Source of the DNA: a virus
Strand: one strand, 5' to 3'
DNA: 64,000 nucleotides
IMG/VR virus record: IMGVR_UViG_3300035670_000102
Coordinates: 1 to 64,000 of that record
Position 1 is the first letter of the stretch. Each line of letters starts with the position of its first letter. The notes under the pieces were generated by a model. It did no database searches. It saw nothing but the letters and a program-made list of their open reading frames with translations, and was not told the DNA's origin. This document shows positions 3,047-57,567 of the stretch, piece after piece. Position numbers and translations under genes: made by a program.

Positions 3047-4306
3047 ATGAAGTCATATTCTCAGTTTATTGACGAGGCACTTTTACCATCTCTGATTAAG
3101 GCAGTAGCAAGATCTACATTTCGAAATAAAGGATTGATATCAAAAGTTGCATCATTAGAAGCAAAACCCATTGCTAAAACTACTTCAAAAATAATTTCAA
3201 AACCAGCAAAAATCACTGGATTTCAAACTGCAAGAGGATCCAAATATACCTATAAACCACAAACAAAATCCTGGCCCCAAACACAAAGAACGGCACTAAA
3301 AGATCCTTATCATCCTACAGCACCTGGAGTTAAACAAAAGTCTGACTACACAATGTTTACAACTCCTGATGCATCAATGGTGATGAGACAGAGATTTGTA
3401 TCAGGATCAAAAGAACCATTCTATCAAGGATTGCCACAATCTACAAAACCTAAAGTAGGAAGAGCACCAGTTGAGGTATGGAATCAATATGCAGAAAAAG
3501 GTGGAAAACAAGCAATACACCCTGGTAGTCCAATCACTGATATTCAAACAGCAACACCAGGTAGTGGTGTAGGATTATATAGAGCACAAAGAAAAGAAAT
3601 CAAAGATAGAGTGAAAACGGCACTTCAAAAATCAGCAAATAAAAAACAACTGAAGAAAGAATTAGGTATTAAACCTATAGAAGATTCTAAACCTTTCACG
3701 TCATATCGTAATGTTGGTGTAGGAAGAAAAGAGAGTGTAAGAGAACAAAGAAGTTTTTTGTTGTTCATCACCGAAGCAAAAAGAAGAATGAGAGTTCTTC
3801 GCACGGCACATTATACGACTGCATCAAATAAAGAAAACATTCTAAGATCAGGATTTAAAGATTCACCATCTACTGGTACATATCATCCTGATGAAAGAAA
3901 AGATATTGTTTATACGACACCATCATCCAGAGTCGGATCTGATTACAGTACGTCCAGAGTCAATTTAAAAATCGTTAATCCAAATGTTACAAGTACTGAT
4001 TCACCTAGAGATTTCGGACCAAAGATTCGTCAATGGATGGCATCTGCATCTGATGAAGAGATTGCAAATAAGGAGGGTAAGCCAATCAGTGCTCCTGATC
4101 AGGCAAAGTCAGCATTTAAGAGAGGAGACAAAGTTGTAAGAGTACCAGATGCTCATGGTGGGTTTGTACCTAAAGAAGGGCAACCAAGAGGATCTTATAT
4201 TGTGGTAGATAAAGAGACTGCAAATAAATCCATTGATAAGAATCCATCTCCCACAGTTAGAGCAAAGAATAAAGAAAGAAGAACCAAAACTTCACCAAAG
4301 AATTAA
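3047..4306 (+). CDS. putative head-packaged protein with capsid-targeting leader and ADP-ribosyltransferase-like domain (419 aa)
   Basis: The N-terminus MKSYSQFIDEA matches the leader of T4 internal head proteins (MKTYQEFIAEA type), which target proteins into the prohead and are cut by protease gp21 after I/LxE. A second leader-like motif, RSFLLFITEA, occurs internally at residues 235-244. Residues 11-235 are basic and low in predicted fold. After the second motif comes AHYTTASNKENILRSGF (H255) and, about 20 residues later, DIVYTTP (Y289). This is the spacing of the His...Tyr core in diphtheria-toxin/PARP-type ADP-ribosyltransferases; a third catalytic residue is not obvious. T4 Alt is a packaged ADP-ribosyltransferase, so a comparable role is plausible. 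The assignment is inference from motifs. Confidence 0.5.
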   Translation: MKSYSQFIDEALLPSLIKAVARSTFRNKGLISKVASLEAKPIAKTTSKIISKPAKITGFQTARGSKYTYKPQTKSWPQTQRTALKDPYHPTAPGVKQKSDYTMFTTPDASMVMRQRFVSGSKEPFYQGLPQSTKPKVGRAPVEVWNQYAEKGGKQAIHPGSPITDIQTATPGSGVGLYRAQRKEIKDRVKTALQKSANKKQLKKELGIKPIEDSKPFTSYRNVGVGRKESVREQRSFLLFITEAKRRMRVLRTAHYTTASNKENILRSGFKDSPSTGTYHPDERKDIVYTTPSSRVGSDYSTSRVNLKIVNPNVTSTDSPRDFGPKIRQWMASASDEEIANKEGKPISAPDQAKSAFKRGDKVVRVPDAHGGFVPKEGQPRGSYIVVDKETANKSIDKNPSPTVRAKNKERRTKTSPKN

Positions 4307-6489: not shown

Positions 6490-6490
6490 T

Positions 6491-6511: not shown

Positions 6512-6533
6512 GTCCACTTTGTTACTATAAAAC

Positions 6534-7727: not shown

Positions 7728-7730
7728 AAA

Positions 7731-7780
7731 CTCGACGAGATGTGCCACATCATCTAGTGGCACATTCAATCTCGACGAGA
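7731..7780 (+). repeat. two ATCTCGACGAGAT-type repeats around a TGTGCCAC hairpin
   Basis: CTCGACGAGAT at 7731-7741 and ATCTCGACGAGA at 7769-7780. Between them TGTGCCAC (7741-7748) and GTGGCACA (7757-7764) form a perfect 8-bp stem. A degenerate copy (CATCGAGATCGAGATC) follows near 7807. Confidence 0.7.
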
Positions 7781-7822
7781 CCTGCATCATCATCTAGATT
7801 ACACACATCGAGATCGAGATCC

Positions 7823-8011
7823 ATGCAAACCGCATTCATCACTCCTATTTCACGCAAGGCAAAGAATCGCTTTGCAAATCTTATGGACAACAATCCTCAA
7901 TGTATTGTCGAACAACACAAGGGAGGAAAACTGTTCATTGCATCTCAGAATCGTAATAATTTCTTCTGGATGCAACTTGACAAAGATCCTGATTGGATGC
8001 TACAATTCTAA
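7823..8011 (+). CDS. hypothetical protein (62 aa)
   Basis: Start chosen at ATG 7823, after the repeat block; the frame is open further upstream but through repeats. MQTAFITPISRKAKNRFANL... then CIVEQHKGGKLFIASQNRNN and DWMLQF: a basic helix followed by a beta hairpin. Similar short proteins occur in cyanophages. Closed by a GGGAGG/CCTCCC hairpin. Confidence 0.6.
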   Translation: MQTAFITPISRKAKNRFANLMDNNPQCIVEQHKGGKLFIASQNRNNFFWMQLDKDPDWMLQF

Positions 8012-8016
8012 CATAA

Positions 8017-8038
8017 GGGAGGAAGGGGTTTGCCTCCC
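8017..8038 (+). terminator. GGGAGG/CCTCCC hairpin
   Basis: GGGAGG (8017-8022) pairs with CCTCCC (8033-8038), loop of 10 nt, six bases after the stop of the preceding gene. No long T-tract. Confidence 0.5.
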
Positions 8039-8114
8039 GCTTGATGAAAGTCACCCTGCGCGAATGAGTACAGATAATTATAGCATATGGGCGTAGGTTC
8101 TATGGGATGTTCAT

Positions 8115-8145
8115 AGGTTGGGGTGGTGCCCAACCTATTTTTTTT
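8115..8145 (+). terminator. strong rho-independent terminator
   Basis: AGGTTGGG (8115-8122), loop GTGGTG, CCCAACCT (8129-8136), then A and eight T residues. The most canonical intrinsic terminator of the left half; it separates the small-gene region from the cassette array. Confidence 0.9.
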
Positions 8146-8365
8146 ATATAATCATATAATACTAGTGTTATATTGTATTGCAGGTTCGGTGGCGATGTGT
8201 TGTTCAGTAGGGATACCCTTCCCCCTTTGGTGCTGGTTGTCCATCTAAAATACCATCAAACCGCCATCAAACCCAGATGCTGTGCCAGTTCGCAAGGTGG
8301 CACAATGGGTCTGGACGGGGGTGGTTTCTGCGCCGTATTGTGTGCTCAGTTCACACCACACCACC

Positions 8366-9100
8366 ATGCTGAACTTCACCAAAGGCAACGCCAAACTGGG
8401 CAAGCAAACCCTGATCTTTAATCTTCCTGCAGGTAAAACCTGCCCCGGTGCATTATTCTGCAAGTCTTTTGCTGTTGTTGATGACAATGGCAAGCGTACC
8501 ATTCAAGACGGCGAGCACACTATCTTCCGTTGCTTCGCTGCATCTTCAGAGGTGCAATATGATGCAGCGTTTGAGAATCGCGCCAACAATTTGCGCCTGA
8601 TTGTTGATGCTCTGCAGAATGGATCTGCTGCAGATCTTATCAACCAAGGCATCCAAGAGTACCGCACAAAGAATACTAAACTCGTGAGAATCCATGAGTC
8701 TGGTGACTTCTTCTCTGGCGCTTATCTTGATGCTTGGATTGAAGTTGCACAGCGCAATCCTGACCTAAAGTTTTATTGCTACTCCAAGAGTTTGCAACTG
8801 TTTCTGAACTTTAATCTTCCTGCTAACTTCTACTTCACCGCATCATATGGTGGCAAGTGGGATCACCTAATTGATGCAGGATTCTTTAAGCGTTACGCTA
8901 AAGTCTTCATGACCGAAGGTGATGCTAACTCTGCAGGGTTAGAAGTTGATCACGACGATTCACACTGTTTCGGTGATAAACCGTTTGCGCTGTTAGTGCA
9001 TGGAACTCAACCTAAAGGTTCTATCTGGGGTGCTGCAATCCGTGCCCGTCGTTCACAACATCAGTTCAGCGGTTACAGTAAGAAACCCGTTGCAGTGTAA
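8366..9100 (+). CDS. phage Gp88-family-like protein (244 aa)
   Basis: Start at ATG 8366, just after a CTCAGTTCACACCACACCAC leader; an in-frame ATG at 8282 lies in the leader region. Sequence LNFTKGNAKLGKQTLIFNLP then KTCPGALFCKS (Cys26, Cys32), RCFAASSE (Cys56) and RIHESGDFFSGAYLDAW fits the phage Gp88 family, in which LP...tCPGA..C and R.H.sGDF..Y...W are conserved. The Cys pattern suggests metal binding. No biochemical role is established. It stands alone with its own leader and terminator, and its GC content is higher than that of the structural genes. Confidence 0.6.
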   Translation: MLNFTKGNAKLGKQTLIFNLPAGKTCPGALFCKSFAVVDDNGKRTIQDGEHTIFRCFAASSEVQYDAAFENRANNLRLIVDALQNGSAADLINQGIQEYRTKNTKLVRIHESGDFFSGAYLDAWIEVAQRNPDLKFYCYSKSLQLFLNFNLPANFYFTASYGGKWDHLIDAGFFKRYAKVFMTEGDANSAGLEVDHDDSHCFGDKPFALLVHGTQPKGSIWGAAIRARRSQHQFSGYSKKPVAV

Positions 9101-9109
9101 GGTATACTT

Positions 9110-9137
9110 AAGGGGGGCAATCGCTCCCCTTTCTTTA
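9110..9137 (+). terminator. G-run/C-run terminator
   Basis: AAGGGGGGC (9110-9118), loop AATC, GCTCCCCTT (9123-9131) with one G-U pair, then TTCTTTA. Ten bases after the stop. Confidence 0.8.
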
Positions 9138-9164
9138 TACTCATTTGTAACAATTAATTCCGCG

Positions 9165-9216
9165 CAGGAGGGGTGGCGACCTTTTTCGTCTTCAGGGCTA
9201 CCCCGCCCCTCTCCTG
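9165..9216 (+). other. possible structured RNA element
   Basis: CAGGAG (9165-9170) pairs with CTCCTG (9211-9216); inside, GGGTGG (9171-9176) pairs with CTACCC (9198-9203), and GAC...GTC closes a small apical loop. The extended hairpin stands in a 245-bp spacer without a gene. It could be a terminator or a leader element. Confidence 0.3.
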
Positions 9217-9315
9217 ATTGTCCCCATATCCTACAGACACCACAGACCCATAAAACCCCAGCAGTGGACAGTTCCACCACTGGCACAAGCTGGTTGATCA
9301 GTGCCCATGATGCTG

Positions 9316-9339
9316 TAGGATTCTCTCAGTTCACACCAC
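9316..9339 (+). promoter_or_regulatory. repeated leader/promoter block, copy A
   Basis: 24 bases starting TAGGATTCTCTCAGTTC and ending ACACCAC, identical to 9682-9705. It ends 6 bp before the ATG of the wHTH-like gene. TAGGAT could act as the -10 box. A shorter relative (CTCAGTTCACACCAC) precedes the ATG at 8366. Confidence 0.5.
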
Positions 9340-9345
9340 TGAACC

Positions 9346-9645
9346 ATGTTCACCTCTCTCACCGATCGCAACACGTTTGGCGCTACGTACCGCTGGGCGA
9401 TCCTGTCGGTTCTGCCGATGGATGATGGCAGCGGTTGCACCGATCAGGATGGGATGCGCCCCACCGACATTAACAACGCTCTGGGGATGCCAAATGAGGC
9501 CCGCACAGCCCTCTCCCTGACCCTTAAGCGTATGGCTGCAGAAGGGCTGATTAAGCGCCATGAGCTGGGCGCCCACTGGGTTGAGTACACTCGCCTGCTA
9601 CCGCTCCGCAAGCGCGAGCGCGTCGCCCGCTGGATTCAAGGGTGA
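9346..9645 (+). CDS. winged-helix-like protein (99 aa)
   Basis: MFTSLTDRNTFGATYRWAIL... then DINNALGMPNEARTALSLTL and KRMAAEGLIKRHELGAHWVE. The helix - recognition helix (EARTALSLTLKRMAAEGL) - beta wing (IKRHELGAHWVEYTRL) order is that of MarR/winged-helix DNA-binding domains; the C-terminus is very basic (LRKRERVARW). Probably a small transcription regulator. Own leader (copy A) and own terminator. Confidence 0.55.
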   Translation: MFTSLTDRNTFGATYRWAILSVLPMDDGSGCTDQDGMRPTDINNALGMPNEARTALSLTLKRMAAEGLIKRHELGAHWVEYTRLLPLRKRERVARWIQG

Positions 9646-9652
9646 TTCAAAC

Positions 9653-9673
9653 GGGGGGCACCAACCGCCCCCC
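9653..9673 (+). terminator. G6/C6 hairpin terminator
   Basis: GGGGGGC (9653-9659), loop ACCAACC, GCCCCCC (9667-9673), eight bases after the stop codon. Confidence 0.7.
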
Positions 9674-9681
9674 ATCCGTGC

Positions 9682-9705
9682 TAGGATTCTCTCAGTTCAC
9701 ACCAC
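9682..9705 (+). promoter_or_regulatory. repeated leader/promoter block, copy B
   Basis: Exact 24-base copy of 9316-9339, starting 8 bp after the previous hairpin and ending 9 bp before the next ATG. The pair shows that single-gene cassettes here share a control element. Confidence 0.5.
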
Positions 9706-9714
9706 ACCACTCCG

Positions 9715-9969
9715 ATGAACTTTTCCTCTCTGACCTTTTCCGATCACAGTGTCATCAAAGGTGGCACAAAAGCACAACATACCTTTGAGAATGGTTGGGC
9801 GATCAGTGTTGTAGCGGGTCCAAAAAATTCGGGACTCTACGGTGACATTCAGCACGACACTTTTGAGGTTGCTGTGATTCGCCCAAATGGTAACATGCTG
9901 GAGGATGTTATCTGCTGGCAAACTCCAGTTCAGATCACAACATTGATGCACCTGATTGAGATGCTCTGA
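9715..9969 (+). CDS. hypothetical protein (84 aa)
   Basis: MNFSSLTFSDHSVIKGGTKA... is beta-rich (WAISVVAGPKNSGLYG, TFEVAVIRPNGNML), with a C-terminal helix (VQITTLMHLIEML). A recurrent small cyanophage protein as far as I can tell; no function. It has leader copy B and its own terminator. Confidence 0.6.
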   Translation: MNFSSLTFSDHSVIKGGTKAQHTFENGWAISVVAGPKNSGLYGDIQHDTFEVAVIRPNGNMLEDVICWQTPVQITTLMHLIEML

Positions 9970-9980
9970 GGTATCATAAA

Positions 9981-9999
9981 GGGGGAGCAATTCTCCCCC
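9981..9999 (+). terminator. GGGGGAG/CTCCCCC terminator
   Basis: GGGGGAG (9981-9987), loop CAATT, CTCCCCC (9993-9999), then C and TTCC. Eleven bases after the stop. Confidence 0.75.
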
Positions 10000-10020
10000 C
10001 TTCCTATCATCACCACTACC

Positions 10021-10203
10021 ATGGCACTATTCTCTCAGGCAACAGATCTTAAAACCCACCAAACAATATGGGTCGGCACTAATGTTCTCAAAGGTAAATC
10101 GCAAGGTAACTCTCACACTCGCAACTGGGATTATGATGGTCTCACTGCAGTAGAGTTAGCTTATCTGCATACTGATTATCACGGCAACGTTAATCCTTCC
10201 TGA
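10021..10203 (+). CDS. hypothetical protein (60 aa)
   Basis: MALFSQATDLKTHQTIWVGT... to DYHGNVNPS, preceded by a CACCACTACC leader. Polar, probably beta-rich at the start. No family recognised. Next gene begins one base after its stop, so these two share a transcript. Confidence 0.5.
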   Translation: MALFSQATDLKTHQTIWVGTNVLKGKSQGNSHTRNWDYDGLTAVELAYLHTDYHGNVNPS

Positions 10204-10204
10204 C

Positions 10205-10342
10205 ATGTATCCTGCTTTCCTTTCTAACATTCAAATCGAAGAACTTGAGACCTTCGGTGTAATTGAAATGACTGAAGAATTGTTTGACGCTATGATGAAT
10301 TGGTGTCAAGGTGACGGTCCAATTGTAGAAAATCTAGACTAG
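10205..10342 (+). CDS. hypothetical acidic protein (45 aa)
   Basis: MYPAFLSNIQIEELETFGVI... to GDGPIVENLD. Acidic helical mini-protein. The stop TAG lies in an AATCTAGACTAGATT palindrome-like sequence that runs into the repeat pair at 10347. Confidence 0.5.
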   Translation: MYPAFLSNIQIEELETFGVIEMTEELFDAMMNWCQGDGPIVENLD

Positions 10343-10346
10343 ATTG

Positions 10347-10394
10347 CGCACACATTAATCTCGACGAGATCGCACACATTAATCTCGTCGAGAT
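10347..10394 (+). repeat. two 24-bp direct repeats each ending in the ATCTCGWCGAGAT palindrome
   Basis: Units 10347-10370 and 10371-10394 are identical (CGCACACATTA then ATCTCGNCGAGAT) except for the palindrome's central base, A in the first and T in the second. As the palindrome is otherwise self-complementary, the second is the same site on the other strand. They lie 37 bp before the next ATG. Confidence 0.85.
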
Positions 10395-10430
10395 ACACAC
10401 ATAACACACATTCACATCTAGATTCACATC

Positions 10431-10595
10431 ATGAACAACAATCAAAAGCAAATTAATTCAATTGGTTTCACAATTAAATATCAAACACCATATAACAATT
10501 GTGAATGGCGCACACAATCATTCACTACAATAGAAGAGGCAAAAAGAATGATAGAGTTCTATAAGTCTTGTGGATCACCTGCTGAATTAGTATAA
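10431..10595 (+). CDS. hypothetical protein (54 aa)
   Basis: MNNNQKQINSIGFTIKYQTP... then EWRTQSFTTIEEAKRMIEFY. Beta hairpin followed by a helix, like small SPOR-type or host-factor-like folds, but too short to assign. AT-rich, unlike the cassettes on either side. Preceded by CATCTAGATTCACATC. Confidence 0.5.
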   Translation: MNNNQKQINSIGFTIKYQTPYNNCEWRTQSFTTIEEAKRMIEFYKSCGSPAELV

Positions 10596-10596
10596 T

Positions 10597-10675
10597 AAAA
10601 GAATAAAAGAATGAAGAATAAAAGAATGAAGAATAAAAGAATAAAAGAATAAAAGAATAAAAGAATAAAAGAATG
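10597..10675 (+). repeat. AAAAGAAT/GAAGAAT tandem repeat tract
   Basis: About ten near-perfect units of AAAAGAAT with some GAAGAAT variants, purine only on the + strand. Its sequence is the complement of the TTATTCTTTATACT repeats downstream, so the two could pair. Confidence 0.85.
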
Positions 10676-10677
10676 AG

Positions 10678-10854
10678 AGTATAAAGAATAGAGAATGAAT
10701 CTTAAGTAGTTCTTTATTCTTTATACTTTACAATCCTAATTGATTCTTTATTCTTTATACTCTCCATTCAGAAGTGCATTGTGATTCTTATAGTCAGTGG
10801 TGTGGTTAATTCTAATCACAATGCACTTCTCAATGGACAGTTATTCTTTATACT
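10678..10854 (+). repeat. 24-nt inverted repeat flanked by three TTATTCTTTATACT direct repeats
   Basis: Arms 10763-10786 and 10814-10837 are complementary over 24 nt with a single C/C mismatch (core AGAAGTGCATTGTGATT / AATCACAATGCACTTCT), 27-nt spacer. Direct repeats TTATTCTTTATACT at 10714, 10748 and 10841 flank it, and AGTATAAAGAATA (10678-10690) is their inverse. Looks like a cruciform-forming, recombination- or replication-related site. Confidence 0.85.
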
Positions 10855-11047
10855 TTGCAATCGCAATCGGTTCTTGATTTTAATTCAGGTGCAATCGCAA
10901 TCGGTTCTGTGTTTGTGTCAGGTGCAATTGCAATTGATTCTGTATTTGTGAGACCTTAAGGTGCAATCGGTTCTTAATTCTAATTCAGGTGCAATCGCAA
11001 TCGGTTCTTGATTCTTTACACTTTGCAATCGTTGTTTGATTCTAATT
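10855..11047 (+). repeat. iteron-like direct repeats (GGTGCAATCGCAATCGGTTC)
   Basis: Six related units starting at 10855, 10888, 10921, 10960, 10988 and 11022, spaced 28-39 bp; units 1-2 are 33 bp apart. Each has GCAATCG (or GCAATTG), most twice, followed by GGTTCT/GATTCT and an AT-rich tail. No coding potential. The arrangement resembles iterons bound by replication initiators, but no such protein is recognised nearby. Confidence 0.75.
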
Positions 11048-11059
11048 AACATTCAAACT

Positions 11060-11326
11060 TGCCAATGCTGGTATCACCTCCGGTGCCGATCCGTCAAGCG
11101 TTTAACCCATAAGCGTCGCCGATCAAACGGATCTGCTTTTTTGTATCCTGGGATACCGTTTGCCCCTTGTGGGATCGGACGCTGGCGCTTACAGTGAGCG
11201 GAGCGAACCTTGAAAACCGAATAGGGCGATGGGCGGAGCGCGGGTGGCGCTGCGCTTCGCGGGCGACGTGTCGGGCGGGATCCCACGCGCCACCATCGCG
11301 CTATTTAATACTTTCAAGATTCGCCA
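11060..11326 (+). other. GC-rich non-coding island
   Basis: Between the AT-rich repeats and the next gene, with a core at 11167-11300 that is strikingly GC-rich for this genome. It has GATCCGT/ACGGATC (7 bp), GTATCC-TG-GGATAC, and GGTGGCGC/GCGCCACC inverted repeats. Frames across it on both strands give low-complexity Arg/Ala-rich peptides, so I do not call a protein. A structured RNA or an acquired fragment is possible. Confidence 0.5.
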
Positions 11327-11353
11327 TTAGTTACACTTTCACCCTACACTTTC
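11327..11353 (+). promoter_or_regulatory. TTAGTTACACTTTC leader repeat, copy A
   Basis: 27 bases (TTAGTTACACTTTC then ACCCTACACTTTC) nearly identical to 11926-11953. It contains TACACTTTC twice and ends 8 bp before the ATG at 11362. Probably a promoter/leader: TACACT can serve as -10. Confidence 0.45.
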
Positions 11354-11361
11354 ACAGTCCC

Positions 11362-11670
11362 ATGACTATTCTTGTCGGACAAGTTGAAACTCTCATGCCT
11401 GAACTTTTGCAGGCAATGAGTGACGCTGACGCTGCAAAGCGTCGCGTTGATGATCTCAAAGCGCAGATGATTGCGCTGATTGAAGAACCTCAAACGGTCA
11501 AAACTTGCTGGGGTTCGGTTACACTTAACAAGGGCAAACGCTCAGTCAAAGTAACTGACAAGGCGTTAAATGCACAGATCACACTACTCAAAGAGAATGG
11601 AATCTCTGAGGGTAAGTGTCAAGAATCCATCTCCGATCCGTTCATCACGGTTCGAAAGTTGGACCGCTGA
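11362..11670 (+). CDS. hypothetical coiled-coil protein (102 aa)
   Basis: Start at ATG 11362 directly after the leader repeat; the frame stays open upstream through the GC island without support. Residues 1-45 are helical/coiled-coil (ETLMPELLQAMSDADAAKRR, VDDLKAQMIALIEE). The rest is a small basic domain (CWGSVTLNKGKRSVKVTDKA ... ITVRKLDR). The plan, coiled coil plus small C-terminal domain, recalls Gam-like DNA-end-binding proteins, but the similarity is only architectural. Closed by a G/C hairpin. Confidence 0.55.
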   Translation: MTILVGQVETLMPELLQAMSDADAAKRRVDDLKAQMIALIEEPQTVKTCWGSVTLNKGKRSVKVTDKALNAQITLLKENGISEGKCQESISDPFITVRKLDR

Positions 11671-11681
11671 GTTACACTTAG

Positions 11682-11701
11682 GGGGGAGACAATCCTCCCC
11701 C
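11682..11701 (+). terminator. GGGGGAG/CTCCCCC terminator
   Basis: GGGGGAG (11682-11688), loop ACAATC, CTCCCCC (11695-11701), then TTTCTTTTT. Good intrinsic terminator. Confidence 0.85.
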
Positions 11702-11735
11702 TTTCTTTTTACAAACCACACCACACTTTTACGCC

Positions 11736-11921
11736 ATGATGACACTTTCTCTCTGCGATGAGCGTATAGTTTATGAAGCAATCTTCCGCCATGTTGAACA
11801 CTTAGCGGAACAGAATTGGGGCAGTTCCGATTCTATTCTGGCAGCAAAAGTTGCCGTCGATTGCTTCCCCAAACTTGGGTATCCTGTGCCCCATTGGATT
11901 ACTGTTCTGGCACAATCCTGA
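11736..11921 (+). CDS. hypothetical protein (61 aa)
   Basis: Preceded by an ACAAACCACACCACAC leader. MMTLSLCDERIVYEAIFRHV... to HWITVLAQS, mainly helical with a Trp/Pro end. No family recognised. It has no hairpin of its own; the leader repeat copy B follows 4 bp after the stop. Confidence 0.5.
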   Translation: MMTLSLCDERIVYEAIFRHVEHLAEQNWGSSDSILAAKVAVDCFPKLGYPVPHWITVLAQS

Positions 11922-11925
11922 TCAG

Positions 11926-11953
11926 TTAGTTACACTTTCCACCCTACACTTTC
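11926..11953 (+). promoter_or_regulatory. TTAGTTACACTTTC leader repeat, copy B
   Basis: Second copy of the 11327 block with one inserted base (TTTCC instead of TTTC), ending 5 bp before the ATG at 11959. Confidence 0.45.
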
Positions 11954-11958
11954 GACCC

Positions 11959-12162
11959 ATGCGCATCACCACACCGCTGCACTTTTCTGAGATTTTCTAC
12001 TTTAATTTCAACCCTAAGTGTGCAGAATGGGATGAGATTTTCGGTCTTAGCGTAGGTAAACTCTACGTGGGTTTGTATAACAAATGCCTCAGCGTTGGTA
12101 TTTTAAACTCTAACGGTGGGTTAGAGTCAAAAAACCAGGTTAAAGTTCGCGTTCTTCCCTGA
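11959..12162 (+). CDS. hypothetical protein (67 aa)
   Basis: MRITTPLHFSEIFYFNFNPK... continues CAEWDEIFGLSVGKLYVGLY; beta-rich. An upstream in-frame ATG (11851) would lie inside the previous gene. No family recognised. Own leader (copy B) and own perfect hairpin terminator. Confidence 0.5.
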   Translation: MRITTPLHFSEIFYFNFNPKCAEWDEIFGLSVGKLYVGLYNKCLSVGILNSNGGLESKNQVKVRVLP

Positions 12163-12167
12163 CATTC

Positions 12168-12195
12168 AAGGGGTGACATTCTCACCCCTTTCTTC
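12168..12195 (+). terminator. perfect 9-bp hairpin terminator
   Basis: AAGGGGTGA (12168-12176), loop CATTC, TCACCCCTT (12182-12190), then TCTTC. Confidence 0.8.
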
Positions 12196-12219
12196 ACACA
12201 AACCACACAGGTCAGCACA

Positions 12220-12639
12220 ATGCGCCACCCTATCATCCGTCACAATGCCCGCCCCGTTTATAGTTTCGCTGGCATCGTTGATGCAATCGAAACCGCTAAA
12301 TCTAAGGGTCTTAAGCGTATCACAATGCGCTTCGATCAGTTTATAGCGAAGCCCTCTAAGTATGATGGCAAGGTTTATATTTTCTCCCATGAAAAAGAAT
12401 TGAATCAGTGGGGCACAATGAGCAACGTTTACCTGGGTTGGATCACTGCAACTGAAACCAATTTGGGTGAAATGGCACTCATTCAAGCGGTGCAATCCGC
12501 TGCGTCTGACCCATACGCCGCAGCCAAACTCTACGGGATGCACACCGGAACCTGTTCATGTTGCGGTCGTGAATTAACCAATTCCCTGTCAATTGCGTTG
12601 GGGATTGGTCCTATTTGCAGGGAAAAGTTCGGACTCTAA
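12220..12639 (+). CDS. zinc-finger-like protein (139 aa, DUF6011-like C-terminus)
   Basis: The C-terminal part reads TGTCSCCGRELTNSLSIALG then IGPICREKF: CxCCGRxL...S...GIGPxC, the small treble-clef-like module (DUF6011 type) found at the end of many phage proteins. The N-terminal 90 residues (IVDAIETAKSKGLKRITMRF...) look like an alpha/beta domain. Probably metal-binding and possibly nucleic-acid-binding. Single-gene cassette with its own terminator. Confidence 0.6.
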   Translation: MRHPIIRHNARPVYSFAGIVDAIETAKSKGLKRITMRFDQFIAKPSKYDGKVYIFSHEKELNQWGTMSNVYLGWITATETNLGEMALIQAVQSAASDPYAAAKLYGMHTGTCSCCGRELTNSLSIALGIGPICREKFGL

Positions 12640-12647
12640 GTTATATC

Positions 12648-12675
12648 GGGGGAGGCGCAATCCTCCCCCTTTATA
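12648..12675 (+). terminator. perfect GGGGGAGG/CCTCCCCC terminator
   Basis: GGGGGAGG (12648-12655), loop CGCAAT, CCTCCCCC (12662-12669), then TTTATATA. Last of the hairpin series. Confidence 0.85.
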
Positions 12676-12906
12676 TACCGATCAGCAGTTCTTATCATTC
12701 GTTCGTTCGTGATTGGCAGTCCTTATCGGTCGGGGGGGCGGTCGCCGCGGCCCCATGGGGCGGTTTATAATGCACGGGTCCCCTTAGGCTACAAAGTGTT
12801 ACGAAAGCGATCGATATATAACACTCAAGATAAAAAAATTCCCGCCATAAAAAATTCACAAATAGGTTGATATATAAAATGAAAAAATTAATAGTAATAT
12901 ATCTTG
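12676..12906 (+). promoter_or_regulatory. intergenic control region with palindromes and a TATAAT box
   Basis: No gene. Contains GCAGT(T/C)CTTATC twice (12685, 12716 region), a G7 run, the perfect palindrome GCCCCATGGGGC (12750-12761), TATAAT at 12766-12771, and an AGTGTTA/TAACACT inverted repeat (12795-12801/12819-12825). The palindrome ends 4 bp before the TATAAT, a position where an operator or activator site would act. It marks the switch from the GC-richer cassettes to the AT-rich region. Confidence 0.45.
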
Positions 12907-13083
12907 ATGGAAAAAAAATTCGGAAAAAATTTTCAGCCCCTACAAGTCGATCAAATTAATGGAGATTATTATATCATTATCCCCGAATGGATAGCGAATG
13001 AACTTTCTTGGTATGAAGATACTGAGATTGAACTTAAGGTTGAATCAAATGAACTTATACTGAGAGAAAAAGAAGATGAGTAA
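12907..13083 (+). CDS. AbrB/MazE-like small protein (58 aa)
   Basis: MEKKFGKNFQPLQVDQINGD... then YYIIIPEWIANELSWYEDTE and IELKVESNELILREKEDE. The order beta (YYIIIP), short helix (WIANELSW), beta (EIELKVE), beta (ELILRE) is that of swapped-hairpin AbrB/SpoVT/MazE DNA-binding domains. The protein is too acidic for a typical DNA binder, so the fold call is tentative. Common in cyanophages upstream of the structural block. No toxin partner is visible. Overlaps the next gene by 8 bp. Confidence 0.5.
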   Translation: MEKKFGKNFQPLQVDQINGDYYIIIPEWIANELSWYEDTEIELKVESNELILREKEDE

Positions 13084-13267
13084 AATTTATCACATTTATG
13101 CAAAAGATAAATGTATATTTCATTCTATTAGTGAAGATGAATTTCAATTGACTTGGAAAACATTGCAATATATGATTGGTATTATTGAGAGTAATTACAC
13201 ACCCAAAGATTTTTCATATGAGGAATTGATCATAAACAAAGAAACTTGCTTAAACTCTTCATATTGA
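13076..13267 (+). CDS. conserved cyanophage hypothetical (63 aa)
   Basis: MSKIYHIYAKDKCIFHSISE... to ELIINKETCLNSSY. Beta strand, helix, helix; the SYEEL end recurs in related cyanophage proteins that I recall. Function unknown. Coupled by overlap to the AbrB-like gene. Confidence 0.6.
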   Translation: MSKIYHIYAKDKCIFHSISEDEFQLTWKTLQYMIGIIESNYTPKDFSYEELIINKETCLNSSY

Positions 13268-13314
13268 CAGATAATACATAATAAGGTATGATACTGAAGT
13301 AAATTAACTCAATT

Positions 13315-14079
13315 ATGGCTAAAGGATTTACAGTAAAAGCAAAAACGCCCATGGCTTCACAGCAACAGCAACAAGAGGAATGGGACTATAATCTCGCAAG
13401 AGAAATGATTAAGGGCAAATCAATTGTATTTTGTCTTCCTGGAAGAGGAGTTTCTTATACATACTTGAAAAATTTTGTTCAACTTTGTTTTGATCTTGTT
13501 CAGAACGGAGCGAGTATTCAAATTTCTCAAGACTATTCATCCATGGTTAATTTTGCTCGTTGCAAATGTCTTGGAGCAAATGTACTACGTGGCCCAGATC
13601 AACTTCCATGGGACGGAAAATTAAATTATGATTATCAACTTTGGATTGATTCGGACATCGTGTTCGACACTTCAAAGTTTTATCAGTTAGTCTTAATGGA
13701 TAAGGATATTGCCGCAGGATGGTACTGCACTGAAGATGGTCATACGACTTCAGTTGCACATTGGTTAGAAGAAGATGATTTCCGCAGTAATGGTGGAGTC
13801 ATGAATCACGAAACTCTTGAGAGTATCTCAAAGCGTCGCAAACCATTTACTGTCGATTACACTGGATTTGGTTGGCTTCTGATTAAAAACGGAGTATTTG
13901 AACATCCAGAAATGAAGTATCCTTGGTTTGCTCCAAAAATGCAAGTTTTTGAATCTGGAGATGTTCAAGATATGTGTGGAGAAGATGTAAGTTTCTGCCT
14001 CGATGCAAAAGAAGCTGGCTTTGAAATTTGGTGCGACCCACGGGTACGAGTCGGTCACGAAAAAACAAGAATTATCTGA
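13315..14079 (+). CDS. glycosyltransferase-like protein (254 aa)
   Basis: After a Gln-rich N-terminus the protein has IVFCLPGRGVSYTYLKNF, then ISQDYSSMVNFARCK and YQLWIDSDIVFD. The IDSD sequence is a GT-A type DxD motif for metal and nucleotide-sugar binding; GFGWLLIKNGVF and CGEDVSFCLDAKEAGFEI (ED acceptor region) continue the GT-A pattern. Widespread in T4-like cyanophages. The substrate is unknown; virion or DNA glycosylation are the usual guesses. Confidence 0.6.
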   Translation: MAKGFTVKAKTPMASQQQQQEEWDYNLAREMIKGKSIVFCLPGRGVSYTYLKNFVQLCFDLVQNGASIQISQDYSSMVNFARCKCLGANVLRGPDQLPWDGKLNYDYQLWIDSDIVFDTSKFYQLVLMDKDIAAGWYCTEDGHTTSVAHWLEEDDFRSNGGVMNHETLESISKRRKPFTVDYTGFGWLLIKNGVFEHPEMKYPWFAPKMQVFESGDVQDMCGEDVSFCLDAKEAGFEIWCDPRVRVGHEKTRII

Positions 14080-44649: not shown

Positions 44650-44958
44650 ATGAAATCTTTTCAACAATTTATTTCAGAAAGTATCAATATTGCGGGAGAT
44701 TTCAATGGAAATCTCTATATGAACAGTTCTCAACCAGAACAAGCAACTGAATCTTTTCTTGCCGATGTAGTTTGGCAGGGTAAGATCTATCGTATGGAAG
44801 TTGAAGGTAAGATGATGAGTAAGAATGAACTTGCAGAACAACTGCAAGATGAATATCCAGGTGCAATTGTTCATAACATTTATCCAAACTCAACTAGTTC
44901 AGTAAAAGTTAAAAACGCACAAAGATATCAACCAGAAAGATTGACTTGGGGTGAGTGA
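44650..44958 (+). CDS. conserved cyanophage protein with capsid-targeting leader (102 aa)
   Basis: Starts MKSFQQFISES, matching the T4 internal-protein leader pattern M-K-[ST]-[FY]-x-x-F-[IL]-x-E-[AS]; gp21 cleavage after FISE is expected. The mature part NIAGDFNGNLYMNSSQPEQA, ...ADVVWQGKIYRMEVEGKM and ELAEQLQDEYPGAIVHNIY looks like one alpha/beta domain. Probably in the prohead core or packaged; function unknown. Start one base after the previous stop. Confidence 0.7.
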   Translation: MKSFQQFISESINIAGDFNGNLYMNSSQPEQATESFLADVVWQGKIYRMEVEGKMMSKNELAEQLQDEYPGAIVHNIYPNSTSSVKVKNAQRYQPERLTWGE

Positions 44959-53203: not shown

Positions 53204-53854
53204 ATGAAACTCATCACAGAAGAAGTACAACAGGTTAAGTTCATAACTGAAGGTAAAGGTACTGAAAAGAAAATGTTTATTGAAGGTATTTTCCTTCAGG
53301 GAGACATTTGCAATCGTAATGGAAGAATGTATCCTATGGAAACTCTTTCCCGCGAGGTTAAGAGATATACAGAAGCATTTATTAATAAAGGACGTGCTCT
53401 TGGAGAACTTGGGCATCCAGATGGTCCAACCGTAAATCTTGATCGTGTTTCTCATAAAATTGTTTCTCTTGAACAAGATGGATGCAATTTTAAAGGAAAA
53501 GCTCAGATTCTTGAAACTCCCATGGGTAAAATTGCTAAATCTCTTTTAGATTCTGGCGTTTGTCTTGGTGTTTCTTCTCGTGGTGTTGGATCACTTCAAA
53601 TGACTAATGAAGGTCATAAAGTTGTTGGTAAAGATTTTATGCTGGCAACTGCTGCTGATATTGTTGCAGATCCTTCTGCCCCTGATGCATTTGTTCAGGG
53701 AATTATGGAAGGTAAAGAATGGGTTTGGGAAGGAGGAATCCTTCGTGAAAAACTCGCAGAATCAACAAAGCGTAGAATAAATACCCTAGTTGACGAAAGA
53801 AAACTTCAGGAACATAAGTTAAATTTATTCAATGAATTTCTTTCAAATCTTTAA
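53204..53854 (+). CDS. gp21: prohead core protease gp21 (216 aa)
   Basis: Serine protease that cuts scaffold, core and capsid proteins after (I/L)xE (T4 212 aa). FIEGIFLQGDICNRNGRMYP is the N-terminal signature. LGELGHPDG supplies the catalytic His71, and LGVSSRGVG the catalytic Ser (124 or 125). Together with gp22 and gp23 it forms the prohead assembly unit; its cleavage rule is the basis for reading the leader peptides at 3047, 44650 and 56623. Confidence 0.95.
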   Translation: MKLITEEVQQVKFITEGKGTEKKMFIEGIFLQGDICNRNGRMYPMETLSREVKRYTEAFINKGRALGELGHPDGPTVNLDRVSHKIVSLEQDGCNFKGKAQILETPMGKIAKSLLDSGVCLGVSSRGVGSLQMTNEGHKVVGKDFMLATAADIVADPSAPDAFVQGIMEGKEWVWEGGILREKLAESTKRRINTLVDERKLQEHKLNLFNEFLSNL

Positions 53855-53893: not shown

Positions 53894-55081
53894 ATGTCCG
53901 TTGGTAGAAATTTACAAGAAATGGAAAACGTAGTAACCAAAGGGGCTGCACCTGCCGAACCAATGCACAATATTGCTCAGAATGCATCTGGAGTTGCAAC
54001 TCCAGGTCAAACTGGTGCATGGGAAGATTTAGGTGGTCCTACTCCAGAAAATTACACAAACGATCCAGAAGGTCCAGCAAAACTTAAGGATCCAGGAGCA
54101 ACTCTCGCTCAAGTTAGAGATGTTGTAAACGCTAAAGCCGTTAAAGCTTCTGCAGTTAAAGAAGAAACTGAAGAAGATGAAGAAGATCTTATTGATGAAG
54201 AAGAAATCGATGAAGAAGAAATCGATGAAGAAGAAATCGATGAAGATGAAGTAGTAGCAGAAGCTAAGAAAGAAGAGGAAGAAGAAGAGGAAGAAGAAGA
54301 GGAAGAAGGTGGTAAGAAAAAAGGTAAAAAGGAAATGGAAGAAGAGTTTGACATTGAGGAAGATGTCAATGCTCTCCTTGCTGGTGAAGAGCTTTCTGAG
54401 GAATTCCAGGAGAAAGCACGTACCATCTTTGAGGCCGCAATTCGCTCAAAAGTTTTTGAGATCAAAGAGTCTCTTCAAGAAACTTATGAATCTGCACTCG
54501 TAGAAGAGGTAGAATTTATTAAGCAAGAACTTATTGAGCGTGTTGACGCATACCTTGAATATGTTGCTGACGAGTGGATCCAAGAAAATGCACTCGCAGT
54601 TGAGCATGGTCTCAAGACCGAAATGACCGAATCATTCCTCCAAGGAATGAAGGGTCTTTTTGAAGATCATTATGTTTCAATCCCTGAAGATAGATATGAT
54701 GTAATCGAGAGTATGGTAGATAAACTTGATGAAATGGAAGAAAAACTCAACGAGCAAATCGAAAGAAATGTTGCTCTGAATAGAAGATTAGCAGAGTCGG
54801 TTGCTGATGTAATTTTTGCAGATGTCGCTGAGGGTCTTGCACTTTCTCAGAAGGACAAACTCGCTTCTCTTGCCGAAAATGTTGAGTTTGATGGTGAAGC
54901 AAACTATCGTGAGAAACTGGTAACTCTGAGGGAATCTTATTTCCCAACAAATACTGGTACTCAAAGAGATATGACTGAGAATTTATCAGAAGAAGTTTCT
55001 TATGAAGGAACTGAAGGTTCTTCAGTTTCCCCAACAATGGAAGCATATCTTCAAACTCTCAGCAGAGTCGCTAAAAAGTGA
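53894..55081 (+). CDS. gp22: prohead scaffold protein gp22 (395 aa)
   Basis: Major scaffold, longer than T4 gp22 (269 aa). The extra length is an N-terminal Ala/Pro/Gly part and a very acidic, low-complexity segment near residues 90-145 (repeats of DEEEID and a long Glu run coded by GAAGAA). The helical scaffold core follows (FEIKESLQETYESALVEEVE, EEKLNEQIERNVALNRRLA). Many LxE sites for gp21. Repetitive GAAGAA codons make this part prone to slippage. Confidence 0.9.
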   Translation: MSVGRNLQEMENVVTKGAAPAEPMHNIAQNASGVATPGQTGAWEDLGGPTPENYTNDPEGPAKLKDPGATLAQVRDVVNAKAVKASAVKEETEEDEEDLIDEEEIDEEEIDEEEIDEDEVVAEAKKEEEEEEEEEEEEGGKKKGKKEMEEEFDIEEDVNALLAGEELSEEFQEKARTIFEAAIRSKVFEIKESLQETYESALVEEVEFIKQELIERVDAYLEYVADEWIQENALAVEHGLKTEMTESFLQGMKGLFEDHYVSIPEDRYDVIESMVDKLDEMEEKLNEQIERNVALNRRLAESVADVIFADVAEGLALSQKDKLASLAENVEFDGEANYREKLVTLRESYFPTNTGTQRDMTENLSEEVSYEGTEGSSVSPTMEAYLQTLSRVAKK

Positions 55082-55131: not shown

Positions 55132-56550
55132 ATGCAAATGTTCAACGCAGAATATTTGCAGGAGAAGTGGGCTCCAATCCTTGACTATCAGGGACTCGAT
55201 GAAATCAAAGATTCACATCGTAGAGCTGTAACCGCTATCCTGCTCGAAAACCAAGAAAGAGAACTCCGTGAGTCACGCGAGTTCCTGTATGAGACTCCAA
55301 CCAATTTCACTGCTTCATCTGCAGGCGCAGCTGGTTTTGGTGGTAGTGCTCAAGGATTTAGTGCTGGTCCTACTGCAGGTTTCGACCCTGTTTTGATCAG
55401 CCTCATCCGTCGTTCAATGCCTAACCTGATCGCGTATGATCTGTGTGGCGTTCAACCAATGAATGGTCCTACTGGACTTATCTTCGCAATGCGTTCGCGC
55501 TATAACAACCAGAGTGGTGCTGAGACCTTCTACAACGAAGTAGATTCTGCATTCTCCGGTCAAGATGCTGGATTAAACGTTGAAACTGGTTTCAGTGGTG
55601 GAAGCGTTGGTATGGGTACTACCGCTCAGGGTGGATCCAATCCAAGTATTCTTGATGCTTCAAACCAAGCAAACAACGCAGGTACAGGTGATAACCAGTA
55701 CAACGTTGGTCAAGGTATGCGTACTGATAGTGCAGAGAATCTTGACGGAACTGGTGGTGATGCGTTCAACCAGATGGCATTCTCGATCGAGAAAGTCACT
55801 GTTACTGCTAAGTCACGTGCTCTGAAAGCTGAGTACTCGCTCGAACTCGCACAAGACCTGAAGGCAATTCACGGTCTGAATGCAGAAGCTGAGCTTGCTA
55901 ACATCCTCAGCACTGAGATTCTCGCTGAAATCAACCGCGAAATCATCCGTACCATCTATAAGGTTGCTAAGCCTGGTGCTCAGGTTAACACCGCTACCGC
56001 TGGTACTTTTGACCTCGACGTTGACTCCAACGGTCGTTGGTCGGTTGAGAAGTTCAAAGGTCTTATTTTCCAAATCGAGCGCGATGCAAACGCAATTGCA
56101 CAGCAAACTCGTAGAGGAAAGGGTAACATGATCCTCTGCTCGGCTGACGTTGCTTCGGCACTCACCATGGCAGGTGTTCTTGATTACACCCCAGCACTCA
56201 ACTCTAACCTTCAGGTTGATGACACTGGTAATACCTTCGCTGGTGTTCTCCAAGGTAAGTATAGAGTCTACATTGACCCATATTCGGCAAACGTAAACGC
56301 CAATCAGTTCTACGTTGTTGGTTATAAGGGTGCATCTCCTTATGATGCTGGTCTTTTCTATTGCCCATATGTACCTCTCCAGATGGTACGTGCAGTTGGT
56401 CAAGATTCATTCCAGCCACGTATTGGATTCAAGACCAGATATGGTCTGGTTGCGAACCCATTTGCTGAGGGTATTACCCAAGGTCAAGGTGCTCTTACCA
56501 CCAATGCAAACACCTACTACAGAAGAGTTAAGGTTGCCAACCTTATGTGA
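55132..56550 (+). CDS. gp23: major capsid protein gp23 (472 aa)
   Basis: T4 gp23 is 521 aa. NAEYLQEKWAPILDYQGLDE I and AVTAILLENQERELRE are the N-terminal delta domain removed by gp21 (an LYE site at 52-54 is a likely cleavage point). SMPNLIAYDLCGVQPMNGPT, LELAQDL..HGLNAEAEL and VAGVLQGKYRVYIDPYSAN-type segments (FAGVLQGKYRVYIDPYSANV) are the conserved shell parts. GC content is clearly higher than in flanking structural genes, as is usual for this highly expressed gene. Followed by a strong terminator. Confidence 0.97.
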   Translation: MQMFNAEYLQEKWAPILDYQGLDEIKDSHRRAVTAILLENQERELRESREFLYETPTNFTASSAGAAGFGGSAQGFSAGPTAGFDPVLISLIRRSMPNLIAYDLCGVQPMNGPTGLIFAMRSRYNNQSGAETFYNEVDSAFSGQDAGLNVETGFSGGSVGMGTTAQGGSNPSILDASNQANNAGTGDNQYNVGQGMRTDSAENLDGTGGDAFNQMAFSIEKVTVTAKSRALKAEYSLELAQDLKAIHGLNAEAELANILSTEILAEINREIIRTIYKVAKPGAQVNTATAGTFDLDVDSNGRWSVEKFKGLIFQIERDANAIAQQTRRGKGNMILCSADVASALTMAGVLDYTPALNSNLQVDDTGNTFAGVLQGKYRVYIDPYSANVNANQFYVVGYKGASPYDAGLFYCPYVPLQMVRAVGQDSFQPRIGFKTRYGLVANPFAEGITQGQGALTTNANTYYRRVKVANLM

Positions 56551-56568: not shown

Positions 56569-56596
56569 AGGGGACCCCACTGGGGTCCTTTTTTTT
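56569..56596 (+). terminator. rho-independent terminator after gp23
   Basis: AGGGGACCCC (56569-56578), loop ACT, GGGGTCCTTT (56582-56591) with two G-U pairs, then a T-tract (eight Ts from 56589). Confidence 0.92.
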
Positions 56597-56598: not shown

Positions 56599-56605
56599 CT
56601 AAATA
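56599..56605 (+). promoter_or_regulatory. late-promoter-like CTAAATA
   Basis: CTAAATA right after the gp23 terminator and 17 bp before the ATG at 56623, making the RlpA-like gene an independent late unit. Confidence 0.5.
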
Positions 56606-56622: not shown

Positions 56623-57039
56623 ATGAAAACCTTCAAGCAGTTTATATCAGAAGCACCAGTTTTTGGTGCAATGGTCCAAACTAGTTCATATGGACCAGGT
56701 TTATATGGAAATCCAACTGCTTCAGGAGCAAAATTAACACCATCCACAAGAGGAGTTGCCCACAAATCTTTACCTCTTGGAAGTCAAGTTAGAATTACAG
56801 ATCCAAAAACTAAAAAATCAATAACTGCACCAGTAGTTGATCGAGGTCCTTATCATGGAAATCGTCAATATGATTTGACAACTCAAACAACAAAAGATCT
56901 GGGATATAAAGATTATAAACAATTTGGTGTAAGAACTCTCGATGTTTCTCCAATAAAAAAGGAAAAATCAAAAATTCCAGATTTAGGTGTAAAGGTTGAT
57001 ATGAGTATTCCCAAAATTATTCCTTCAAAAAGAAAATAA
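56623..57039 (+). CDS. RlpA-like double-psi beta-barrel protein with capsid-targeting leader (138 aa)
   Basis: Starts MKTFKQFISEA, the T4 internal-protein leader; gp21 should cut after E10. The mature part has SSYGPGLYGNPTASGAKL, GVAHKSLPLGSQVRI and VVDRGPYHGNRQYDLT, the three signature regions of RlpA-type double-psi beta-barrels. H47 and D73 match the His and Asp required in RlpA lytic transglycosylases, so cleavage of peptidoglycan glycan strands is possible. C-terminal tail is Lys-rich (KKEKSKIPDLGVK, PSKRK). No signal peptide. Likely packaged in the head and delivered with DNA, or used at assembly; this is inference. Confidence 0.75.
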   Translation: MKTFKQFISEAPVFGAMVQTSSYGPGLYGNPTASGAKLTPSTRGVAHKSLPLGSQVRITDPKTKKSITAPVVDRGPYHGNRQYDLTTQTTKDLGYKDYKQFGVRTLDVSPIKKEKSKIPDLGVKVDMSIPKIIPSKRK

Positions 57040-57567
57040 ATGGCATCCATAACATCATCACAAATTTCAAATAGAAATTTTTTATCTCCAGTTGGATTTG
57101 AATTTAATATTATGAGACATCCTAAAATAACATTTTTTTGCAATTCTGCAAAACTTCCAGATATAACTTTACCAACACTAACTCAACCATCATATTTGAA
57201 AGATATTGATATTGCCGGTAATAAAGTTGAATATGGAGATTTGGTGATTAAATTTTTAGTTGATGAAAATATGGTCAACTATATTGCAATACACAATTGG
57301 ATAACTGGTATAGGATTTCCAGAGTCAACAGAGCAATATAAAAAATTAATAACTAATCAAGATGGTATATCCGATCCACTGATACAATTCAGTGATGGTA
57401 TACTTAAGGTTTTAAATAGCAATTATGTACCATCGATCACAATTGCATTTAAAGATTTGTATCCTGTCAGTTTAACTCCTTTGGAATTTAGCTCAGATGT
57501 TCAGGATATTAAGTACTTTACAGCTCAAGCATCTTTCAAGTATACTATTTACGACATTGAAAATTAA
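57040..57567 (+). CDS. gp3: tail completion / sheath stabiliser protein gp3-like (175 aa)
   Basis: MASITSSQISNRNFLSPVGF... then FNIMRHPKITFFCNSAKLPD, IDIAGNKVEYGDLVIKFLVD ENMVNYIAIHNWI. This is the tail-tube fold shared by T4-type tube, initiator and completion proteins. Length equals T4 gp3 (176 aa), and gp3 next to uvsY and uvsW is the known order in cyanophages. A gp54-like tube initiator is the alternative. Begins immediately after the previous stop. Confidence 0.7.
   Translation: MASITSSQISNRNFLSPVGFEFNIMRHPKITFFCNSAKLPDITLPTLTQPSYLKDIDIAGNKVEYGDLVIKFLVDENMVNYIAIHNWITGIGFPESTEQYKKLITNQDGISDPLIQFSDGILKVLNSNYVPSITIAFKDLYPVSLTPLEFSSDVQDIKYFTAQASFKYTIYDIEN

What the first reader, a model, noticed from the sequence alone, without database searches (positions are those of the whole stretch)
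56623..57039. RlpA-like peptidoglycan enzyme carrying a T4-type capsid-targeting leader
MKTFKQFISEA is an almost textbook internal-protein leader, yet the mature part is an RlpA-type double-psi beta-barrel with the His (47) and Asp (73) of RlpA lytic transglycosylases. It has no signal peptide. This suggests a cell-wall enzyme stored in the capsid and released at infection, a location not normally expected for phage wall-degrading proteins, which sit on the baseplate.
Basis: partly seen in the sequence, partly recalled or inferred. Interest (0 to 1): 0.72.

Follow-up and report, generated by a model that had tools for sequence, protein, structure and literature searches.

The report
RlpA-like protein with capsid-targeting leader
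A family of T4-like viruses of cyanobacteria carries, next to the capsid gene, a small cell-wall-enzyme-like protein whose first ten residues are the address label that T4-type phages use to load proteins into the head, so it is probably packed with the DNA and released into the next host; whether it really cuts cell wall is still open.

Summary
ORF 56623-57039 starts MKTFKQFISEA, close to T4 IpII/IpIII (MKTYQEFIAEA), followed by a double-psi beta-barrel (Pfam DPBB_1, 2.6e-9). Among relatives found by mature-domain patterns alone, all 58 distinct proteins have the leader (one after a one-base frameshift). Residues 4 and 7 (targeting in T4) and 8 and 10 (cleavage in T4) are conserved; residue 9 is free. 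The gene always lies between gp23 and a tail-tube-like gene. The same leader heads about 45 unrelated cargo families, among them the cytidylyltransferase/NMNAT family that published proteomics found in purified cyanophage virions. The nearest isolate, S-SRM01, has another leader-bearing cargo in this slot. Head targeting is therefore well supported, though not shown by experiment. The enzymatic part is weaker: Asp73 is invariant and His47 nearly so, but the Glu usual in RlpA is mostly lost, and the family lies in a different subclade from true RlpA and from the exported RlpA-like proteins of other cyanophages. Internal-head wall enzymes exist already (T7 gp16), so this is a new variant, not a new kind.

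The parts
56623..57039 (+). ORF, 138 aa: leader plus RlpA-like double-psi beta-barrel plus basic tail
56623..56655 (+). capsid-targeting leader MKTFKQFISE|A; predicted gp21 cleavage after codon 10 (Glu10, ending at 56652)
   Evidence: T4 leaders; T4 rule L/I-x-E and roles of residues 4, 7, 8, 10 in PMC9026906; conservation
56674..56946 (+). double-psi beta-barrel (residues 18-108), His47 and Asp73 present, Ala36 where RlpA has Glu
56947..57036 (+). Lys/Pro-rich C-terminal tail (residues 109-138), low model confidence, variable in the family
56599..56605 (+). CTAAATA, late-promoter-like motif 17 bases before the start codon; only 4 copies in the window against 17.65 expected
   Evidence: kept in 17 of 29 relatives checked. 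Reading as a late promoter is inference
56572..56596 (+). terminator-like hairpin GGACCCC-ACT-GGGGTCC and T run after gp23
   Evidence: read from sequence
55132..56550 (+). gp23 major capsid protein, 84% identical to that of Synechococcus phage S-SRM01
53894..55081 (+). gp22 prohead core scaffold (T4 leaders dock to the prohead core)
   Evidence: Pfam T4_CASP 2.7e-80, PHROG 237 2e-107
53204..53854 (+). gp21 prohead protease (would cleave the leader)
   Evidence: Pfam Peptidase_S77 1.4e-34, PHROG 207 2e-80
57040..57567 (+). tail-tube-like protein (PHROG 45), conserved downstream neighbour
44650..44958 (+). second leader-bearing ORF, MKSFQQFISES.., PHROG 1742, between structural genes
3047..4306 (+). 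third leader-bearing ORF, MKSYSQFIDEA.., 419 aa

Best explanation
It is a T4-type internal head protein whose cargo is an RlpA-like double-psi beta-barrel. Shown by sequence: leader, cleavage motif, barrel, fixed place beside gp23, leader and barrel both under strong purifying selection. Inferred: it is made late, its leader docks it to the gp22 core, the shell closes round it, gp21 cuts after Glu10, and the mature barrel (about 14 kDa) stays with the DNA and is ejected through the tail at infection. Most likely cargo action, with lower confidence: it binds and perhaps cleaves host glycan (peptidoglycan), with Asp73 as the catalytic residue, during or just after DNA entry. Confidence by step: addressed to the head 0.85; delivered into the host 0.65; acts on peptidoglycan 0.4.
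For: Leader nearly identical to T4 IpII/IpIII. In a search with mature-domain patterns only every distinct protein has the leader: 57 of 58 directly, the last after a one-base frameshift. Conserved positions (F/Y4 57/57, F7 57/57, hydrophobic 8 in 51/57, E10 53/57, A11 53/57, position 9 free) are those that T4 genetics assigns to targeting (4, 7) and processing (8, 10) (PMC9026906). Modularity: a leader DNA pattern gave 126 matches, median about 5 codons from the upstream in-frame stop, heading about 45 unrelated clusters. Virion evidence for the leader: leader-bearing cytidylyltransferase/NMNAT-like proteins are in MS virion lists of S-SCSM1 (MKSFLQFLKEA), S-SZBM1 (MRFRQFIIEA) and S-CREM2 (MKNFSSFLTEA), and the family in S-SM1; the window's own record has one at 80854. 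In S-CREM2, 5 of 6 ORFs with a strict leader start are virion proteins against 52 of 219 overall (Fisher p=0.003, motif written after inspection). Slot: 49 of 49 relatives with both flanks lie between gp23 and the tail-tube-like gene, and none of the 9 with one flank differs; S-SRM01 has another leader cargo there. dN/dS about 0.12 for leader and barrel, 0.48 for residues 12-17. Asp73 invariant, His47 in 53 of 57.
Against: No proteome of this phage or a close relative exists, so packaging of this protein is not observed. S-SZBM1's two good-leader ORFs (191, 192) were not in its MS list, so the leader does not guarantee detection. Glu36 of RlpA is kept in only 8 of 58 members, and 4 have Asn or Ser for His47. 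T4 internal proteins go to the cytoplasm, where there is no peptidoglycan. Four distinct members have Gln at position 10 (MKTFREFQEQ type), so they would be targeted but not cut at that site.
Confidence: 0.65

Rival explanations
1. The leader works as above, but the barrel is not an enzyme: it is a binding or inhibitor protein injected to block a host defence or alter a host process, as T4 IPI* does for a restriction enzyme.
For: Most members lack the RlpA Glu; closest cellular relatives form a subclade with other residues there and His or Asn at 47; the fold is also used by kiwellin and the Streptomyces papain inhibitor; T4 internal proteins are known anti-restriction proteins (PMC3012670).
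Against: Asp73 and a whole groove-type signature (S21, Y23, G24, P25, G29, N30, T32, G35, D73, R74, G75, P76) are invariant, and dN/dS is low, without the fast change expected of an arms-race protein.
Confidence: 0.35
2. It is an ordinary lysis or envelope-remodelling protein made late in infection; the leader is a relic or a general N-terminus of late proteins and the protein is not packaged.
For: Other cyanophages carry RlpA-like proteins that look exported and are not in the virion list (S-SZBM1_29).
Against: Those proteins have signal-peptide-like N-termini and belong to another clade; this family has no export signal; its leader is under purifying selection at the T4 targeting and cleavage residues and occurs on virion-detected cargo.
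Confidence: 0.12
3. It is a tail or neck protein; its place beside the tail-tube-like gene reflects a tail role.
For: Downstream neighbour is a tail-tube-like gene; DPBB domains occur in the baseplate hubs of A-1(L) (8kea) and S-CBWM1.
Against: The hub versions are parts of large tail proteins with the canonical Glu; this is a small free protein with a head leader; S-SRM01 keeps a leader-bearing non-DPBB protein in the same slot.
Confidence: 0.06

Closest known systems
T4 internal head proteins IPI, IPII, IPIII (and Alt)
   Same: 10-residue leader, same targeting and cleavage residues, gp21/gp22 system present, diverse mature parts
   Different: Mature part is an RlpA-like barrel; no T4 internal protein of this kind is known to me; cyanobacterial host
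RlpA septal lytic transglycosylase / PA4485 (PF03330)
   Same: Double-psi beta-barrel, Asp of the DRGP motif, His of the AH[KR] motif
   Different: No signal peptide, lipobox or SPOR domain; Glu of TASGE mostly lost; different subclade
T7 gp16 and other podovirus internal-head lytic enzymes
   Same: Cell-wall-type enzyme domain stored in the head (PMC5380687)
   Different: gp16 is a large core protein that forms part of the extensible tail; here a small barrel addressed by a T4-type leader in a myovirus
RlpA-like proteins of S-PM2, S-CREM1, S-CRM01, S-SZBM1; hub DPBB of S-CBWM1 and A-1(L)
   Same: DPBB domain in cyanophages
   Different: Signal-peptide-like N-terminus or part of the tail hub, canonical Glu, separate clade
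Leader-bearing cytidylyltransferase/NMNAT-like proteins of cyanomyoviruses (T4-GC190)
   Same: Same leader
   Different: Different cargo fold; presence in virions observed by MS rather than inferred

Membership tests
T4-type internal head protein (CTS cargo) | N-terminal 10-residue leader with aromatic residues at 4 and 7 | tested here: met
   F4, F7 in the window; F/Y4 and F7 in 57/57; T4 reference and PMC9026906
T4-type internal head protein (CTS cargo) | gp21 motif L/I-x-E ending at residue 10 | tested here: met
   I8-S9-E10|A11 in the window; hydrophobic 8 in 51/57, E10 in 53/57
T4-type internal head protein (CTS cargo) | phage encodes prohead protease gp21 and core scaffold gp22 | tested here: met
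   53204-53854 and 53894-55081
T4-type internal head protein (CTS cargo) | leader shared by proteins with unrelated mature parts | tested here: met
   about 45 clusters in 122 proteins
T4-type internal head protein (CTS cargo) | present in purified heads, leader removed | not testable with these tools
   only other leader-bearing cargo is in published virion lists
T4-type internal head protein (CTS cargo) | injected into the host | not testable with these tools
   none
RlpA lytic transglycosylase | double-psi beta-barrel matching DPBB_1 and known structure | tested here: met
RlpA lytic transglycosylase | conserved Asp of DRGP and His of AH[KR] | tested here: met
   D73 in 57 of 57 scored, H47 in 53 of 57
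RlpA lytic transglycosylase | conserved Glu of T[AN][SN]GE | tested here: not met
   Ala36 in the window; Glu in 8 of 58. That this Glu matters is from my own knowledge; the primary paper was not held
RlpA lytic transglycosylase | export signal or lipobox, and SPOR domain | tested here: not met
   sequence; only DPBB_1 passes its cut-off
RlpA lytic transglycosylase | groups with bona fide RlpA in a tree | tested here: not met
   leader-phage clade (98/92) sits with Melainabacteria/Sericytochromatia and Actinomycetota DPBBs, apart from the cyanobacterial and other phage RlpA clade (91 columns only)
RlpA lytic transglycosylase | transglycosylase activity on denuded glycan | not testable with these tools
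   none

The most novel reading that the evidence does not exclude
T4-like cyanophages use the capsid-targeting leader as a general address label for dozens of cargo proteins, and one lineage has put a glycan-cleaving barrel under it, so that a wall enzyme is stored in the head of a myovirus and ejected with the DNA instead of sitting on the baseplate.
Probability: 0.35. Interest if true: 0.75.

Novelty: new variant of a known kind. Interest (0 to 1): 0.62.

Why it matters
If right, it gives a sequence rule (ten N-terminal residues) for predicting which of the many unknown cyanophage proteins are packaged and delivered at infection; it explains why enzymes such as the NMNAT-like proteins keep turning up in cyanophage virion proteomes (the authors left open that they are carry-over from the lysate); and it places an RlpA-type barrel in a compartment where none has been described for a myovirus. 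In the held library only one paper, a T4 review, mentions both capsid targeting and cyanophages.

Tried and rejected
Chance leader: rejected. Homologues of the same clade without the leader: looked for with mature-domain patterns in IMG/VR; none, L267 being a one-base frameshift. Direct proteomic evidence for the DPBB itself: none of the phages with published virion lists that I read carries this family. Catalytic residues of RlpA from the primary paper: not held; two RlpA papers that are held give no residue numbers. Photosystem gene as host marker: absent from the 93-kb fragment, so the host rests on gp23 similarity to cyanophages. Phage lysozyme PF00959 in the fragment: none, uninformative because the record is partial. 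RNA families near the gene: none. ADP-ribosyltransferase reading of the leader-bearing ORF 3047-4306: no Pfam or PHROG support, left as an impression.

Full report
WHAT IS THERE. The ORF at 56623-57039 is real: ATG start, 138 codons, preceded by a terminator-like hairpin after gp23 and by CTAAATA 17 bases before the start. CTAAATA occurs only 4 times in the window against 17.65 expected, three of them 17-31 bases before structural or late genes, which fits a late-promoter motif (inference). The product starts MKTFKQFISEA. T4 IpII and IpIII, read from the T4 record, start MKTYQEFIAEA and IpI MKTFKEF. The rest matches Pfam DPBB_1 (2.6e-9, above cut-off), PHROG 7930 and PDB 4avr; an AlphaFold2 model (mean pLDDT 74, barrel about 80-90) matches 4avr and the DPBB domain of the cyanophage A-1(L) baseplate initiator, then kiwellins, expansins, barwins and, weakly, MltA.

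SURROUNDINGS. The window is part of a 92,965-bp virus record of a T4-like cyanophage: gp20, gp21, gp22, gp23 upstream, tail-tube-like protein and UvsY downstream; gp23 is 84% identical to that of Synechococcus phage S-SRM01 from a Singapore reservoir. The known partners of a T4-type leader (gp21 protease, gp22 core) are present.

THE FAMILY. A first IMG/VR search gave 55 loci; a second, using only mature-domain patterns (YGPGLYGN and G[VI]A[HN]K[TKS]LPL), gave 99 relatives, 80 kept. Of 58 distinct proteins, 57 carry the leader, and the remaining one (L267) has MKTFQQFMVEATPFAVI in the neighbouring frame, a one-base indel. In all 49 loci with both flanks the gene lies between gp23 and the tail-tube-like gene, and none of 9 loci with one flank contradicts this (L054, a remote 39% match, is a different RlpA-like protein). 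Leader and barrel both evolve under strong constraint (median dN/dS 0.12 each) while residues 12-17 just behind the cut site are loose (0.48) (short segments, so rough).

RESIDUE-LEVEL TEST OF THE LEADER. T4 work showed that residues 4 and 7 of the leader direct targeting, 8 and 10 direct processing, that L/I-x-E is the gp21 motif and that ten residues suffice (PMC9026906). In this family position 4 is F/Y (57/57), 7 is F (57/57), 8 is I/M/L/V (51/57), 9 is anything, 10 is E (53/57), 11 is A (53/57). The few exceptions (MKTFREFQEQ type) keep 4 and 7 and lose 8 and 10.

THE LEADER IS A MODULE. Behind it are about 45 unrelated sequence clusters, including a GNAT acetyltransferase and DUF6267, cytidylyltransferase-like proteins and, without being asked for, four DPBB proteins in the same gp23-adjacent slot. 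The window's own record has five leader starts, one of them a cytidylyltransferase/NMNAT-like protein. The slot itself is exchangeable: S-SRM01 has MKSFQQFQEDLSKN.. (56 aa, no barrel) there, and L057 a 63-aa leader protein; L057 ends in YGKY like DPBB members L101 and L155, hinting that a barrel was inserted into a small leader protein (conjecture).

IS THE LEADER LINKED TO VIRIONS IN CYANOPHAGES? Published lists: S-SM1 T4-GC190 cytidylyltransferase (PMC3037559); S-SCSM1 NMNAT ORF91 (PMC9602691); S-SZBM1_140 (PMC9146016); S-CREM2 ORF154 (PMC10665884). I read the N-termini of the last three: MKSFLQFLKEA, MRFRQFIIEA and MKNFSSFLTEA. In S-CREM2 other non-structural virion proteins also have leader-like starts: SAM hydrolase MKDFDSFLEE, kinase VKRFDAFLTEE, ORF13 MKDLHSFLTEQ, ORF136 MQTFSMFFSED, and the Cas9-like protein has RFASFMAEA close to its start. 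Over all 219 ORFs, strict leader starts are virion proteins in 5 of 6 cases versus 52 of 219 overall (p=0.003; looser motif 7 of 11, p=0.004). The motifs were written after I had looked at these sequences, so the p-values are optimistic. Counter-example: S-SZBM1_191 and _192 have good leaders but are not in its list.

THE BARREL. Asp73 is invariant, His47 is kept in 53 of 57 (Asn or Ser otherwise), but the Glu of TASGE is Ala, Gln, Ser or Thr in most and Glu in only 8 of 58. Cellular proteins of the same subclade (Caenarcaniphilales, Sericytochromatia, Solirubrobacterales) mostly lack it too. A tree of 79 domains (91 columns, low resolution) makes the leader-bearing phage proteins one clade (98/92) within that subclade and apart from cyanobacterial RlpA and from the RlpA-like proteins of S-PM2, S-CREM1, S-CRM01, S-SZBM1 and the S-CBWM1 hub, which have signal-peptide-like starts or are tail-bound. 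MltA-type transglycosylases work with one catalytic Asp (PMC4499186), so activity with Asp73 alone is possible, not shown.

HOW IT MOST LIKELY WORKS. Late synthesis, docking on the gp22 core through residues 4 and 7, gp21 cut after Glu10, retention in the filled head, ejection with DNA. Foreign proteins fused to the T4 leader are packaged and delivered in this way (PMC9026906). In the host it probably engages glycan; a non-catalytic role against a host defence is nearly as likely. T4 internal proteins end in the cytoplasm, so a peptidoglycan role needs action during passage, as for T7 gp16, which is itself an internal-head lytic transglycosylase (PMC5380687).

VERDICT. Observation confirmed; head targeting well supported; wall-enzyme function open. 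New variant of a known kind. The broader value lies in the leader as a predictor of packaged cargo in cyanophages.

Noticed in passing
window 3047-4306 (+): 419-aa ORF with leader MKSYSQFIDEA and a second internal leader-like stretch FLLFITEAKRRMRVLRTAHYT; the part from there resembles a separate leader-bearing protein in L087 (MKTFSEFIAEARRMRVLRTAHYT), so it looks like a fusion of two capsid cargoes. No Pfam, PHROG or phage-record match.
   Followed up: partly
window 44650-44958 (+): 102-aa leader-bearing ORF (PHROG 1742, unknown function) with matches in 135 cyanophage records; a conserved candidate head cargo.
   Followed up: partly
own record G000:C1:80854 (outside the window): Leader-bearing cytidylyltransferase/NMNAT-like protein (MKTFFQFIVEA...), the family repeatedly found in cyanophage virion proteomes.
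   Followed up: yes
S-CREM2 record OR473000 (L177), 7704-13331 (-): The Cas9-like protein detected in S-CREM2 virions has a leader-like segment RFASFMAEA near its start, and neighbours gp13-gp15 also start leader-like; possibly a cluster of capsid-delivered effectors.
   Followed up: no
window, CTAAATA at 42883, 50760, 56599 (and 18222): CTAAATA is strongly depleted (4 against 17.65 expected) and three copies sit 17-31 bases before structural or late genes; probably the late promoter of this phage.
   Followed up: partly
L193 (S-SRM01) 6487-6657; L057 1970-2158: The slot after gp23 holds other leader-bearing small proteins in related phages; L057 shares the C-terminal YGKY with some DPBB members.
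   Followed up: partly
L016 from 288: In this contig the DPBB frame runs on into the downstream tail-tube-like protein: a frameshift or assembly error, or a real fusion.
   Followed up: no
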